Origin: Bolinopsis microptera
Lineage: Eukaryota; Ctenophora; Tentaculata; Lobata; Bolinopsidae
Length of the DNA: 64,000 bases
NCBI RefSeq assembly: GCF_026151205.1
Contig: NC_087072.1
Span: forward strand, 10,826,169 to 10,890,168
Direction of reading: 5' to 3'
Shown here piece by piece: positions 20,146 to 26,286 of the stretch. Positions within the stretch are counted from its first letter, which is position 1. Each line of letters begins with the position of its first letter. Under the pieces are notes generated by a model. It worked only from the letters and a program-made list of their open reading frames with translations, ran no database searches and was not told the origin of the DNA. The position numbers and the translations under genes are program-made.

Positions 20146-20568
20146 CACAATGCTGGCAAGCATAACCGTTGCCCTTATATTCACAACACTATTTACCCCC
20201 TATACTATTATATCCCCTTTATTGTTTTCCAGGCATTAAGACTCATCGAAAGTAATTCAGCAGGTATATCTAAGTTCAAAACATTCTAATTCAATGTTAA
20301 AGATGACAGGAATAAGAAATAGTTATGTGGAGGTTTTTAAGAAATTTGCGCAAAATACGCGCCAGCATGTTATACGAAATTAGGTAAAAAACCCAAAATC
20401 GCCATATTCAGGTGCCTTAAAAACCATGTTAAAATTGAGTTAGAGATCTGAAACTTTGCAGGGCGTCTAGACCTTGTCCAAATCGACTGTAAAAAAATTT
20501 TCATGTTTCAGGAGTATCGTGAAGTGGGTTTTCTGGAACCCCTGTTTTACAACAGATTGTCGTGAAGA
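20146..20568 (+). repeat. Repeat B, copy 1
   Basis: First of three direct copies of a non-coding 420-540-bp unit. It begins CACAATGCTGGCAAGCA, includes CCCCTTTACTATT-type microrepeats and a TTCAGGTGCCTTAAAAACCA core, and ends ACAACAGATTGTCGTGA. No coding frame is conserved among copies. Confidence 0.8.
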
Positions 20569-20569
20569 T

Positions 20570-20996
20570 CACAATGCTGGCAAGCATGACCGTCGCCCTT
20601 ATATTCACAATACTATTTACCCCCTTTACTATTTACCCACCTTTACTATTTACCCCCTCTACTATTTACCCCCTTTACTATTTACCCCCCTTACTGCTTA
20701 CCCCCATTCTAATTCGATGTTAAAGATGACAGGAATAAGAAATAGTTATTTGGAGATTTTCAAGAAATTTGTGCAAAATACGCGCCAGCATGTTATACGA
20801 AATTAGGTAAAAAACCCAAAATCGCCATATTCAGGTGCCTTAAAAACCACGTTAAAAATGAGTAAAAGATCTGAAACTTTGCAGGGTGTCTAGACGTTGA
20901 CCAAATCGAGTGTACAAATTTTTTCAAGTTTCAGGAGTATCGGGAAGTGGGTTTCCTGGAACCCCTGTTTTACAACAGTGAACAGATTGTCGTGAA
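20570..20996 (+). repeat. Repeat B, copy 2
   Basis: It abuts copy 1 head-to-tail. It contains an expanded tract of TATTTACCCCCTTTAC microrepeats (20615-20705). The 3' half is about 95% identical by eye to copy 1, including the ACCCCTGTTTTACAACAG end. Confidence 0.8.
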
Positions 20997-21011: not shown

Positions 21012-22359
21012 ATAGACGCTTTGGCAGTCAATTGTAGCCTACATTTAAGTGTCCGTAGATTCAAAAGTATAAACGATACAGTCATCTCCAACCATAGGTC
21101 TTGAAGATAATCGTTTACACTTTAGTTTACATTATATCAAAAAACAATTTAACGTCATCGTCACCACTTGATGACGTCATCAAATTAAGCGTTTTTAAAT
21201 CTTGATTATTGACAAAATAACAACTTTTCAAATCAATTTAACACCATTAAGGAGTAATTTTATTCAAAATCTGAGCAAATTTTTATCCTAGATAATTGTT
21301 CAAGCATTCTAAAAATCTACCGGAAAATGTTTCTACCTTGCTCCTTCATAAAGATATTTGCTATTGAAGTTAGTGCTTTTTTGAAGAATAATTTTATAAA
21401 AACACAAAAGTTGTGAATTAGTATTCTCTGGTGTTGGGCCATCTCTTGGGTGGTGGAGCTCAATTTTGCTTCTTAAAGGTCTAAATTGTGTTATAGGCTA
21501 GTTTTAAAGTTGAAAATCGAAAAGTTGCACACGTGGGGACACGCCCAAATTGATAGAAAATTGCTAAAATCACTGAAAATTGTTATTTTCACGATTTTTA
21601 TCAGCTTTGGAGTCCCGTTGTGATGCGAGTTCTTGCTAAAATATTCTGAAACTTTGCACACTTATTAAAATACATAAGAAATACGAAAATTCAAAATTTT
21701 ACGGTGATTTGATATTGGATGCGCACGCAACGTCCGCTCAAAGTTTGCAAAAAGTGAGAACTTCACTCTCTTTATTTCGATTAGATTTAGTTCCTGCTTT
21801 AACAGTAACATGACAGTTAAATGACATTATATTTGAGTTTAGTGCCAACTTGATAGATTATATAGTTGCATATTCAATCAGTGATCGACAGATATGCTTA
21901 CCTAAACACAAGGAAATGTTTTTAAAGGAAAAATTTCGAAATTGTTGAAACTTCCTCCTTATTAATGAAGATATCAGTTTATATTTCGACTTTATAAAAT
22001 ACTCTGACATTACAATCAAAAAGAGATGATATTTGACCAAAACCCATAATCATGGGTAGAGTGGACCGCTGCCAGTGTCTCTCTTTCCCAAACAAAAGGA
22101 AATGATATTAATTTGACTGACCGTTCTCATATGCAAATTGATACCGAGAATGAAATCGGTCGCTCGCTTTTTCTATTCAATAAGCTTTATTACAATTCGT
22201 AAGCCGTGAATGAATGGGAAAAGCGAGCGACCGATTTCATTCTCGGTATCAATTTGCATATGAGAACGGTCAGTCAAATTAATATCATTTCCTTTTGTTT
22301 GGGAAAGAGAGACACTGGCAGCGGTCCACTCTACCCATGATTATGGGTTTTGGTCAAAT
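21012..22359 (+). repeat. Repeat A, copy 1, ending in a long hairpin
   Basis: About 1 kb of non-coding body begins TAGACGCTTTGGCAG and includes CTTGATGACGTCATCAA and GTTGCACACGTGGGGACAC. It is followed by a terminal hairpin. Two further direct copies start at 22929 and 24479. No conserved open frame is seen. It behaves like a non-autonomous element or locally amplified segment. Confidence 0.8.
22031..22359. repeat. Long hairpin 1 (141-bp identical arms)
   Basis: The left arm 22031-22171 and right arm 22219-22359 are exact reverse complements by direct reading, separated by a 47-bp loop. The copy-specific inner segment reads GACTGACCGTTCTCATATGC in the left arm and is mirrored exactly in the right arm. 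Confidence 0.9.
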
Positions 22360-22895
22360 CACAGTGCTGGCAAGCACGAGCGGTGTCTTTATTGGGGGTA
22401 TACTATGTACCCCCTTTACTATTGTACCCCCTTTACTATTATACCCCCTTTACTATTATAACCCCTTTGGTACTCGTCGGAAGCCTCTTTCGTGCACGCG
22501 AAGCGTGCACTCCGGCCGGAGGCGGCGGCCGAAGGCCGCCGCCTCCGGCAGGAGTTTTTCAGGCATTAAGACTCATCGGAAGTCGTTCAGCAGATTTATT
22601 TTTAGTTCAAAACATTCTAATTTGATGTCAAAGATGACAGGAATAAAAATAGTTATGTTGAGATTTTTAAGAAATTTGCATAAAATACTCGCCAGCACTG
22701 TTATACGAAATTCGGTAAAAAACCCAAAATCGCCATATTCAGGTGCCTTAAAAACCATGTTAAAATTGAGTTAGAGATCTGAAATTTTTCAGGGCGTCTA
22801 GACGTTGACCAAATCGACTGCAAAAAAAGTTTCAGGTTTCAGGAGCATCGGGAAGTGGGTTTTCTAGAACCCCTGTTTTACGATAGATTGTCGTG
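22360..22895 (+). repeat. Repeat B, copy 3, with GC-rich hairpin insert
   Basis: It matches B copies 1 and 2 at both ends. It carries extra TACCCCCTTTACTAT microrepeats (22405-22465) and an inserted GC-rich double hairpin at 22492-22548. Confidence 0.8.
22492..22548. repeat. Two adjacent GC-rich hairpins with GAA loops
   Basis: Hairpin one (22492-22510) has 8-bp arms GTGCACGC/GCGTGCAC around GAA. Hairpin two (22516-22548) has perfect 15-bp arms CCGGAGGCGGCGGCC and complement, again around GAA. The composition is far above the AT-rich surroundings, and the segment is absent from B copies 1 and 2. Confidence 0.9.
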
Positions 22896-22928
22896 ATACA
22901 TATATACATATATATATATATTCAGGGA

Positions 22929-24455
22929 TAGACGCTTTGCCAGTCAATTGTAGCCTGTATTTAATTGTCCATAGATTCAAAAGTATAAAAGATACAGCCA
23001 TTTCCGACCACAGGTCTTGCAAATAATTGTTTATACTTTAGTTTACATTGTATAAAAAAATTATATGACGTCATAAACACCCCTTGATGACGTCATCAAG
23101 TTAACCGTTTTTAAAACTTGATTTTTGACAAAGTAATAACTTTTAAAATTAATTTTAAACCATTAAGGAGTAATTTTATTCAAAATCTGAGGAAATTTTC
23201 ATCTTAGATAATTGTTCAAGCATTCTGAAAATCTACCAGAAAGTTTTTCTAGCTTGCTCCTTCATAAAGATATTCGTCATTGAAGTTTGTGCTTTTTTGA
23301 AGAATTATTTTATAAAAACGTCAATTTTGCGATTTAGTATTCTCTGGTGTTGGGCCATGCCTTGGGTTGTGGAGCTCAGTTCTGCTTCCTATAGGTATAA
23401 ATTGTGTCATAGGCTAGTTTTAAAGTTGAAAATCGAAAAGTTGCACACGTTGGGACACGCCCAAATTGATAGAAAATCGCTAAAATCACTGAAAATTGCT
23501 GTTTTCGTCATTTTCTGTCAACTTTAGAGTGCCGTTGTGATTACAGTTCTTCTTAAAATACTTTGAAACTTTGCATGCTTATCAATCTATATATAAAACA
23601 ATTACATGCAAAAATTTACGGCGATTCAATATTGGATGCGCACGCAACGTCTGCTCAAAGTTTGCACGTGCGAAAGGTGAGAATTTTGCTCATTCGTTAT
23701 TTCCAACAAATTCTGCTTTGCCACGACAGTTTAATGTCATTATATATGAATTTAATGCCAACTTGAATGAGTATTAAGTGGCATATTCAGTCAGTGATCG
23801 ACCGATATGCTTCCCTAAACACAAGGAAATGTTTTTAAAGGATAGATTTCGAAATCGTTGAAACTTCCTCCTTATTAATGAAGATATCAGTTTATATTTC
23901 GACTTTATAAAGTACCCTGACATTATAATCAAAAAGAGATGATATTTAACCAAAACCCATAATCATGGGTAGAGTGGACCGCTGTCAGTGTCTCTCTTTC
24001 CCAAACAAAAAGAAATGATATTACTTTGATTGACCGTTCTCAAATGCAAAATGATACCGAGAATGAAATCGGTCGCTCGCTTTTCCCATTCATTTACAAT
24101 TGTAATAGATTAAGAAGAACTACCCAAAGGCAGCTGTACTCGGCAATGAAGATTCAATAAACTTCAGCTAATTCAATAAGTAATACTAATAACTACCACC
24201 CTTACCCCGAAATACTAGGTATCGACCCGAACGCAACCCAAAGAGATTTTTACAGCATCTGATTGATGTAATCAATCGAAACTTATTACAATTCGTAAGC
24301 CGTGAATGAATGGGAAAAGCGAGCGACCGATTTCATTCTCGGTATCATTTTGCATTTGAGAACGGTCAATCAAAGTAATATCATTTCTTTTTGTTTGGGA
24401 AAGAGAGACACTGACAGCGGTCCACTCTACCCATGATTATGGGTTTTGGTTAAAT
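22929..24455 (+). repeat. Repeat A, copy 2, ending in a long hairpin
   Basis: It has the same order of body motifs as copy 1 but ends in a larger hairpin with a 210-bp loop. It is separated from copy 3 by a short (TA)n stretch only. Confidence 0.8.
23944..24455. repeat. Long hairpin 2 (151-bp identical arms)
   Basis: Arms 23944-24094 and 24305-24455 are exact reverse complements by direct reading. Variants specific to this copy (ATTTAACC, CTGTCAG, ATTACTTTGATTGACC, CTCAAATGCAAAATG) occur in both arms. Confidence 0.9.
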
Positions 24456-24478
24456 ATATATATATATAATAATATGTA

Positions 24479-25805
24479 TAGACGCTTTTTGCAGTCAATT
24501 GTAGCCTACATTTAAGTGTCCGTAGATTCGAAAGTATAAACGATACAGTCATCTCGAACCACAGGTTTTAAAGATAATCGTTTAAGCTTTAGTTTACATT
24601 GTATTAAAAAATAATTTAACGTCATCATCATCACTTGATGACGTCATCAAATTAAGTGTTTTAAAAACTTGATTTTGACAAAGTAACAACTTTTCAAATC
24701 GATTTTACGCTATTAAGGAGTAATTTTATTCAAAATCTGAGGACATTTTGATCTTAGATAATTGTTCAAGCATTCCGAAAATCTACCGGAATAGTTTCCT
24801 ACCTTGCTCCTTCATAAAGATATTTGCTATTGAAGTTAGTGCTTTTTTGAAGAATAATTTTATAAAAACACAAAAGTTGTGAATTAGTATTCTCTGGTGT
24901 TGGGTCATCCCTTGGGTTGTGGAGCTCAATTTTGCTTCTTAAAGGTGTAAATTGTGTTATAGGCTAGTTTTAAAGTTAAAAATCGAAAAGTTGCACACGT
25001 GGGGACACGCCCAAATTTATTTAAAATAGCTAAAATCACTAAAAATTTTATTTTCACGATTTTTATCAACTTTGGGGTCCCGTTGTGATCCAAGTTCTTT
25101 TTGAAATCTTCTGAAACTTTGCATGCTTATCAAACTATATATTAAATACCACTATGCAAAAATGTACGGTGATTCAATATTGTATGCGCACGCAACGTCC
25201 GCTCAAAGTTTGCACGTGCGAAAGGTGAGAATTTTGCTCATTCGTGATTTCGAATATATTCTGCTTTCCACGATATTTAAATGGCATTATATATGAATTT
25301 AATGCCAACTTGAATGAGTAAAAAGTGCCATATTCAGTCGGTTATCGACAGATATACCTAACTAAACACAAGGAAACGTTTTCAAAGGCAGAATTTCGAA
25401 ATCGTCGGAATTACCTCCTTGTTAATGAAGTTTCGATTGTGTAAATTATCCTGACATTATAATCAAAAAGAGATGATATTTGACCAAAACCCATAATCAT
25501 GGGTAGAGTGTACCGCTGCCAGTGTCTCTCTTTTCCAAACAAAAGGAAATGATATTAATTTGAGGAACCGTCCGCTAATGCAAATTGATACCGAGAATGA
25601 AATCGGTCGCTCGCTTTTTCCATTCGATCACGGCTTACGAATTGTTTAAAGCTTATTGATTTGAAAAAGCGAGCGACCGATTTCATTCTCGGTATCAATT
25701 TGCATTAGCGGACGGTTCCTCAAATTAATATCATTTCCTTTTGTTTGGAAAAGAGAGACACTGGCAGCGGTACACTCTACCCATGATTATGGGTTTTGGT
25801 CAAAT
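24479..25805 (+). repeat. Repeat A, copy 3, ending in a long hairpin
   Basis: It begins TAGACGCTTTTTGCAG and follows copies 1 and 2 throughout. The body is more diverged, with several short deletions (around 25430-25445). Confidence 0.8.
25478..25805. repeat. Long hairpin 3 (142-bp identical arms)
   Basis: Arms 25478-25619 and 25664-25805 are exact reverse complements by direct reading. The copy-specific stretch GAGGAACCGTCCGCTAATG differs clearly from hairpins 1 and 2 but is mirrored exactly in its own other arm. Confidence 0.9.
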
Positions 25806-25928: not shown

Positions 25929-26054
25929 AATTTTACAGCTTACGCCTTACTCATATAACAAAAACGTATAACTATAAGCATCTACACACAACACAGAACG
26001 GTTGCGGTCGAAATTTAATTACGACATAGACTGTCAAATATCACGCAAATAATT

Positions 26055-26286
26055 GACCATTGTTAATGGTCTGGCCCGGCGCACGCTACTTCGTAGCACT
26101 TGCCATCGGGAAGAAAGTTGACGGATGTTACTCGTCTAAGTTTCTTCGAAGTAGCGCGCGCCGCTTTCTTCTCGAAAAACGGTACGAGCTACGAAGTAGC
26201 GCGCGCCGGGCCAGATCATTAACAATGGTCAAGAAGAAAGCGGCGCGCACTACTTCGAAGAAATGTAGACGAGTAACATCCGTCAA
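26055..26286. repeat. Interleaved inverted repeats (A-B-A'-B' order)
   Basis: A 26055-26096 pairs with A' 26189-26230 (42 bp, 2 mismatches). B 26118-26172 pairs with B' 26232-26286 (55 bp, 3 mismatches). Because B starts inside the A loop and B' lies outside A', the two stems cross, which is a pseudoknot topology. The sequence is rich in GCGCGC and CTACTTCG. The open frames crossing it are by-products of the symmetry. Confidence 0.85.

What the first reader, a model, noticed from the sequence alone, without database searches (positions are those of the whole stretch)
22031..25805. Three long hairpins with arms identical within, but different between, copies
In each of three hairpins the two 141-151-bp arms are exact reverse complements by direct reading. 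Between hairpins the same region carries clear differences (ACTGACCGTTCTCATATG, ATTGACCGTTCTCAAATG, AGGAACCGTCCGCTAATG), and every variant is mirrored in its own partner arm. Independent mutation would break the mirror. Something homogenises the arms: intra-hairpin gene conversion, replication through a folded intermediate, or repeated regeneration of one arm from the other. Transcribed, each would give about 140-bp perfect double-stranded RNA, a natural source of endogenous siRNA.
Basis: seen in the sequence. Interest (0 to 1): 0.82.

Follow-up and report, generated by a model that had tools for sequence, protein, structure and literature searches.

The report
Mirror-keeping hairpin ends of a transposon
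The three hairpins are the built-in end of a mobile DNA element with over a thousand copies in this animal genome, and variants are passed on in both hairpin arms together, which points to one arm being copied from the other when new copies are made.

Summary
In detail: three palindromes whose arms mirror each other exactly for 141, 151 and 143 bp. They are the end of a dispersed, non-coding repeat: a body of about 1.0 kb plus the hairpin, often preceded by a module X. A 33-base arm end occurs 2,773 times in the 264.65 Mb assembly; 1,283 body-to-arm edges are found. In 74 hairpins, variants shared by two or more hairpins are mirrored 330 times against 14 one-arm cases, while variants never seen mirrored are nearly all private. 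One variant of window hairpin B occurs in the assembly only in its own two arms. Loops occur in both orientations, with at least 11 changes on a body tree; two loops carry snap-back duplications. Decayed copies keep unmirrored mutations. Best reading: arms are equalised by hairpin-templated copying, probably when copies are made, then decay. Template switching that equalises arms and inverts spacers is known (PMC8604942). A Helitron that first looked like the autonomous partner proved to be nested in one copy; the transposase is unidentified. Small RNAs were not testable.

The parts
20570..20995 (+). Module X upstream of element A (a further partial X lies at 20146-20565)
   Evidence: blastn of 22360-22930 against the window; start 'AT/CACAATGC'
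21015..22030 (+). Body Y of element A, non-coding
   Evidence: 85% identical to body B, found directly beside hairpins at other loci
22031..22179 (+). Hairpin A, body-side (P) arm
   Evidence: 141 bp exact mirror of the distal arm
22180..22210 (.). Hairpin A loop, flipped relative to L005, L016 and L017, whose 330-bp bodies are identical in the tree
22211..22359 (-). Hairpin A, distal (D) arm; the end of the element is 22359
22360..22930 (+). Module X (with TA-rich tail) of element B: minisatellite, G+C-rich palindrome
22931..23943 (+). Body Y of element B
23944..24455 (.). Hairpin B: arms 23944-24095 and 24304-24455, exact over 151 bp, loop of about 208 bases; carries variants 5A and 68A in both arms
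24456..24480 (.). TA-rich spacer between elements B and C
24481..25477 (+). Body Y of element C, without X
   Evidence: 85% identical to body B; preceded by the TA-rich spacer
25478..25805 (.). Hairpin C: arms 25478-25628 and 25655-25805, exact over 143 bp; loop in the orientation opposite to A

Best explanation
The hairpins are the terminal palindrome of a high-copy, non-coding transposable element. The two arms behave in inheritance as one sequence. When a new copy is made, the end folds and one arm serves as template for the other (template switching or snap-back synthesis, perhaps with mismatch repair of the hairpin); this mirrors new variants and sometimes inverts the loop. After insertion the arms decay largely independently. 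Shown: position at the end of a repeated unit, copy number, mirrored inheritance, loop inversion, snap-back duplications in two loops, unmirrored decay in old copies. Inferred: that the copying belongs to the transposition cycle, that it works on a folded strand, and that the element moves by a rolling-circle-like route.
For: 71 of 74 hairpins have the same body directly on one side and variable DNA on the other. 2,773 arm ends, reversed control 0; 1,283 body-arm edges, control 0. 24 allele types are mirrored in two or more hairpins, with 330 mirrored and 14 one-arm incidences; 49 types are never mirrored, and 2 of these recur in the same arm; in the adjacent body 87 types are shared and 86 single, Fisher p = 4e-10. 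Position 87 has four alleles, 73 of 74 hairpins concordant; positions 34, 88, 95 and 97 are concordant in 74 of 74. Rare allele 5A: two loci in the assembly, all four arms. Allele 68A in its context: only the two arms of hairpin B. Allele 95G: mirrored at 5 of 5 loci where both arms still cover the site; 4 further loci lack it in the partner. Loop orientation needs at least 11 changes on the body tree (5 forced by well-supported branches), 9 among short loops. L060 and L047 loops hold inverted duplications. The three most decayed hairpins have 27 discordant and 0 private mirrored substitutions, the other 71 have 42 and 12.
Against: Five one-arm variants recur in the same arm of two or three hairpins (positions 5, 42, 57, 84, 131), so a little transmission of discordance is possible; 131 is a CpG. 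Rare allele 46A is mirrored in L033 but one-armed in L094 and L095. The sister of hairpin B (L085, 99.5% over 1,160 bases) has 68G in its body-side arm, but a one-base deletion makes its distal arm unreadable at 68; and 68A sits at one locus only, with no one-armed parent in the assembly, which later conversion at that locus would explain as well. No pair of loops is an exact inversion once the loop edges are included (0 pairs; 50 pairs for the inner core). The age split (p = 0.007) was made after seeing the data and rests on three copies. The sample is not random: 20 loci were best matches to arm A, the rest mainly exact arm-end matches on one contig. The transposase is unknown.
Confidence: 0.62

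Rival explanations
1. Continuous intra-hairpin gene conversion or quasipalindrome correction at each locus, unconnected with transposition.
For: 68A is confined to the two arms of one locus; 12 strictly private mirrored variants in 74 hairpins; the process is known for inverted repeats (PMC8604942, passages).
Against: Decayed copies keep many unmirrored substitutions and show no private mirrored ones (3 copies); private in the sample does not mean private in the genome, since 74 of about 1,390 hairpins were read.
Confidence: 0.22
2. No homogenisation: the copies are young, and only elements with well-paired arms transpose, so mirrored variants are compensatory pairs kept by selection.
For: Copies are young (within-hairpin divergence 0.64%). 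Two single-arm derivatives (L062, L071) have junctions found once each in the assembly, as if they do not multiply.
Against: Four alleles at position 87 and two or three at 34, 57, 88, 89, 95, 97, 99, 108 and 110 are mirrored with few or no discordant intermediates; double hits at so many sites are improbable. Loop inversions are not explained.
Confidence: 0.08
3. Assembly or sequencing artefact (fold-back reads closed into false palindromes).
For: Long palindromes are a known product of fold-back reads (general knowledge).
Against: Loops are asymmetric and differ in length and orientation, flanks differ, subfamily alleles recur at many loci, and decayed copies exist.
Confidence: 0.01
4. A hairpin-RNA gene family kept mirrored by selection for double-stranded RNA or siRNA.
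For: The strand would fold into a helix of about 150 bp.
Against: No expression data; the most variable stretch (about arm 85-113) lies inside the helix, and one-arm mutations persist after insertion, as expected of sequences under no such constraint.
Confidence: 0.05

Closest known systems
Template switching between inverted-repeat arms (PMC8604942, abstract and passages; PMC8794818, passages)
   Same: Arms made identical, spacer or loop inverted, new reverse-complement duplications: the three marks seen here.
   Different: Described for short repeats in replicating yeast and RNA genes; here 150-bp arms at the end of a transposon, apparently tied to its multiplication.
Helitron2 and HINE/DINE-1 rolling-circle elements (PMC3627910, PMC4067079, passages)
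   Same: Hairpins at both ends in the reverse orientation (giant one at one end, a short covarying stem-loop near the X end), microsatellite and minisatellite modules, high-copy non-coding elements, T-rich or A+T-rich targets.
   Different: The published end hairpins are short; here the arms are about 150 bp. The asymmetric terminal repeat is only 4-5 bp. No RepHel partner found.
Canonical Helitrons (PMC4778049, passages; a copy nested here)
   Same: A before and T after the ends in nearly all copies; a 16-nt palindrome 10 nt inside the hairpin end; single-stranded intermediates would let the arms fold.
   Different: No CTRR end; ends unlike those of the canonical Helitron of this genome.
Foldback-like elements such as Galileo and Tetris (PMC4168063 passages; PMC4079207 listing only)
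   Same: Long inverted repeats, much structural reshuffling, composites with two hairpin ends facing outwards.
   Different: Here the palindrome sits at one end of the usual unit, and no constant target-site duplication was seen.
Parvovirus rolling-hairpin replication (recalled, no call)
   Same: Terminal hairpin with two loop orientations, one arm regenerated from the other.
   Different: No such protein or intermediate shown here; analogy only.

Membership tests
Canonical Helitron | Insertion between A and T without target-site duplication | tested here: inconclusive
   A and T before the X start in 16 of 17 starts read, T in 17 of 17; outer base A at 73 of 74 body-side and 74 of 74 distal arms. 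No duplication in most of 11 loci, but possible ones in L011 (8 bp), L012 (6 bp), L016 (6 bp); TA-rich filler in L014.
Canonical Helitron | 5' TC and 3' CTRR with a short hairpin about 11 nt from the 3' end | tested here: not met
   Starts TCACA if the T belongs to the element and has a 16-nt palindrome 10 nt from the end, exact in 71 of 74 arms of each side (partly by choice of loci), but ends GGTCAAA/T, no CTRR.
Canonical Helitron | Related autonomous element with RepHel sharing the ends | tested here: not met
   The C11 RepHel element is nested inside Y and has its own ends. No arm in 5 kb upstream of 8 RepHel loci, nor in 5 kb downstream of 4; other families not examined.
Helitron2 / HINE | Hairpin at both ends | tested here: met
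   Giant palindrome at one end; at the X end a 5-bp stem with a 4-base loop whose outer pair covaries (ATGCT/AGCAT and GTGCT/AGCAC). Two states only.
Helitron2 / HINE | Asymmetric terminal inverted repeats of 8-15 bp | tested here: inconclusive
   TGACC near the hairpin end and GGTCA beside the X stem-loop, 4-5 bp only, by reading; no statistics.
Helitron2 / HINE | Rep/helicase partner | tested here: inconclusive
   41 Helitron_like_N matches in the genome, none linked to these ends in the stretches fetched.
TIR or foldback DNA transposon | Terminal inverted repeats with constant target-site duplication | tested here: not met
   No constant duplication at 11 loci; usual units have the palindrome at one end only, though composites with two outward ends exist.
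Arm homogenisation by template switching | Equalised arms, inverted spacers, snap-back duplications | tested here: met
Hairpin RNA / endo-siRNA locus | Small RNAs from the hairpin transcript | not testable with these tools
   No RNA data; only a fold of the strand.

The most novel reading that the evidence does not exclude
An animal transposon that rebuilds its own end in each round of movement: the terminus folds, one arm primes or templates the other in a rolling-hairpin-like cycle with flip and flop loops, so that only one arm is truly inherited and a perfect palindrome is both product and condition of transposition.
Probability: 0.25. Interest if true: 0.82.

Novelty: new variant of a known kind. 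Interest (0 to 1): 0.55.

Why it matters
How long near-perfect palindromes survive in genomes is an old question. This family gives over a thousand copies of one palindrome with 150-bp arms in one assembly, in related subfamilies, with mirroring, loop inversion and later decay all readable at single bases. That makes the timing and rate of arm copying measurable without an experiment, and gives a concrete search for the enzyme that moves it.

Tried and rejected
Autonomous partner: one search showed X and the first 60 bases of Y upstream of a RepHel ORF on C11, and searches showed Y and the hairpin downstream; my notes treat it as the partner.

Read-through capture: L002 and L011 share 186 bp after the hairpin, but also 344 bp before X, so this is a larger duplicated segment.

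Empty sites: joined flanks of 9 loci gave a usable match only for L014, inserted in another X, with 29 extra TA-rich bases against 7 other X copies.

Arms clustering by locus: not found; they group by subfamily. Long palindromes at other RepHel 3' sides: none in L098-L101.

Dropped before counting: 21 unpaired or damaged arm pieces (among them L002, L010, L014, L019, L035, L039, L062, L064, L065, L069-L072) are not in the 74 hairpins. Allele counts use arm columns 1-133, substitutions only. Sampling: L001-L020 came from the best matches to arm A, L021-L074 from the about 100 exact matches listed of 2,773, all on C1.
Full report
WHAT IS THERE. The window is C1:10826169-10890168 of a 264.65 Mb assembly in 232 contigs. 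It holds a MAT1 gene, an M28 peptidase exon and non-LTR reverse transcriptases; I take it for an animal genome, no call names the species. The three hairpins are real, with mirror runs of 141, 151 and 143 bp. Each ends a repeated unit: body Y of about 1.0 kb lies before the hairpin, and similarity between units stops at its far edge. Elements A and B also have a module X upstream, joined to Y by a TA-rich spacer of variable length; C has none. The only frame of 150 codons or more that overlaps the units runs through a hairpin arm and X (22283-22774), so the unit looks non-coding.

GENOME-WIDE. A 33-base arm end with up to 3 mismatches occurs 1,384 times forward and 1,389 times reverse, reversed control 0, so about 1,390 hairpins if all are paired. 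A 37-base pattern across body and arm occurs 622 + 661 times, control 0, roughly one per hairpin. Of 74 hairpins taken from the window and L001-L074, 71 have the body on exactly one side and 3 on neither. The 20 bases after the hairpin are 80% A+T, against 62% at bases 41-60. Copies cluster: among 72 exact edges on C1, 22 neighbour intervals are under 8 kb: 12 tandem, 7 with bodies facing each other, 3 tail to tail.

THE MIRROR. Divergence between copies is 12.6% in the adjacent body and 5.1% in the arms; between the two arms of a hairpin it is 0.64% (71 hairpins). Subfamily variants are mirrored: position 34 is G/G 41, T/T 23, A/A 10; position 95 T/T 37, C/C 36, G/G 1; position 97 T/T 38, G/G 36; position 87 G/G 25, C/C 19, T/T 16, A/A 13 and one A/T. 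Over columns 1-133, 24 allele types are mirrored in two or more hairpins (330 mirrored, 14 one-arm incidences), 14 in one hairpin, and 49 in none (54 incidences). Of the 49, two recur in the same arm (84; and 131, a CpG, in three hairpins). Three more one-arm recurrences (5, 42, 57) concern alleles mirrored elsewhere. The body beside the hairpin has 87 shared and 86 single types (Fisher p = 4e-10 against 2 and 47). Transmitted discordance should look like the body. It does not.

LOCUS-LEVEL TESTS IN THE WHOLE ASSEMBLY. Allele 5A with 42T occurs at two loci, four arms: hairpin B and C1:22111268 (L085). These sisters are 99.5% alike over 1,160 bases. B has 68A in both arms; L085 has 68G in its body-side arm, while a one-base deletion makes its distal arm unreadable there. 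The 68A context is found twice in the assembly, in B's two arms. Allele 95G gave 12 arms at 9 loci. Three loci were paired at once; of the other six, two carry 95G in a partner with a further change and four have no partner base at that site, so 5 of 5 readable loci are mirrored. Allele 46A is mirrored in L033 but one-armed in L094 and L095, a result against a strict rule. Discordant allele 48C occurs in one arm once.

LOOP. Of 45 short-loop hairpins with known body side, 31 have one orientation and 14 the other. The inner loop core matches exactly in opposite orientation in 50 pairs; with the loop edges included, in none. On a tree of bodies the orientation changes at least 11 times, 9 times among short loops, and well-supported branches force 5; many forks are open. 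Window A is flipped relative to L005, L016 and L017, whose bodies are identical to it in the tree. L060 has its loop duplicated in inverted form, and L047 has two internal snap-back palindromes. These are the marks of template switching as described in PMC8604942 (abstract and passages) and, for loops, PMC8794818 (passages).

TIMING. The three most decayed hairpins (L054, L067, L063) have 27 discordant and no private mirrored substitutions; the other 71 have 42 and 12 (two-sided p = 0.007, split chosen after the fact). This favours mirroring when a copy is made. The locus-private 68A fits an error early in that process, but also later conversion at the locus. I have not separated these.

NEED FOR BOTH ARMS. 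Two derivatives that lost the body-side arm (L062, L071) have junctions found once each in the assembly, as if they do not spread; two cases are few.

WHAT KIND OF ELEMENT. Open. For a rolling-circle element: A and T around the ends in nearly all copies, a short covarying stem-loop at the X end, a 16-nt palindrome 10 nt inside the hairpin end, satellite-like modules, different lengths sharing one end. Against: no CTRR, a terminal repeat of only 4-5 bp, possible short duplications at L011, L012 and L016, no partner. The RepHel element on C11 (Helitron_like_N and PIF1; HUH-like PHAHI and YIFKYVYK strings, recalled as Helitron motifs) is a nested canonical Helitron.

LITERATURE. Read in passages: PMC3627910, PMC4067079, PMC4778049, PMC8604942, PMC8794818, PMC4168063. 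In seven answered searches, whose listings are capped, I saw no Helitron-like element with a palindrome of this size; the library is an open-access subset, so this is weak.

Noticed in passing
L076:about 2101 to L083:4393 (C11); L084; L081/L099 (C8): A canonical Helitron with an open RepHel frame of 1,759 codons, three RepHel matches in a row on C11; L083 and L084 are 100% identical over 3,981 bases, so it looks recently active.
   Followed up: partly
window 26053-26286: Two further interleaved inverted repeats (58 bp at 93%, 52 bp at 90%) just downstream, richer in G+C and unrelated to the arms.
   Followed up: no
window 22509-22555: G+C-rich palindrome in X whose core GGCCGAAGGCC also forms the 3' hairpin core of the canonical Helitron; chance or kinship not tested.
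   Followed up: no
C1:4036539-4039685 (L025, L016) and similar spacings on C1: Five places on C1 have two elements head to head with body-hairpin edges 2,456-2,502 bp apart, as if a composite of about 3.1 kb with outward hairpins at both ends exists.
   Followed up: partly
L025, L004, L015: Hairpins of two elements tail to tail with 11-13 A+T-rich bases between; in L025 the two sides are 98.5% alike over 679 bases.
   Followed up: partly
L011 (C9) and L002/L086 (C1): The same element copy lies in a larger shared segment (344 bp before X, 186 bp after the hairpin); the C1 version has lost the body-side arm.
   Followed up: partly
L102 (C10:9083000-9089000): A stretch with many nested inverted repeats downstream of a RepHel fragment, including an X-Y-hairpin copy.
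   Followed up: no
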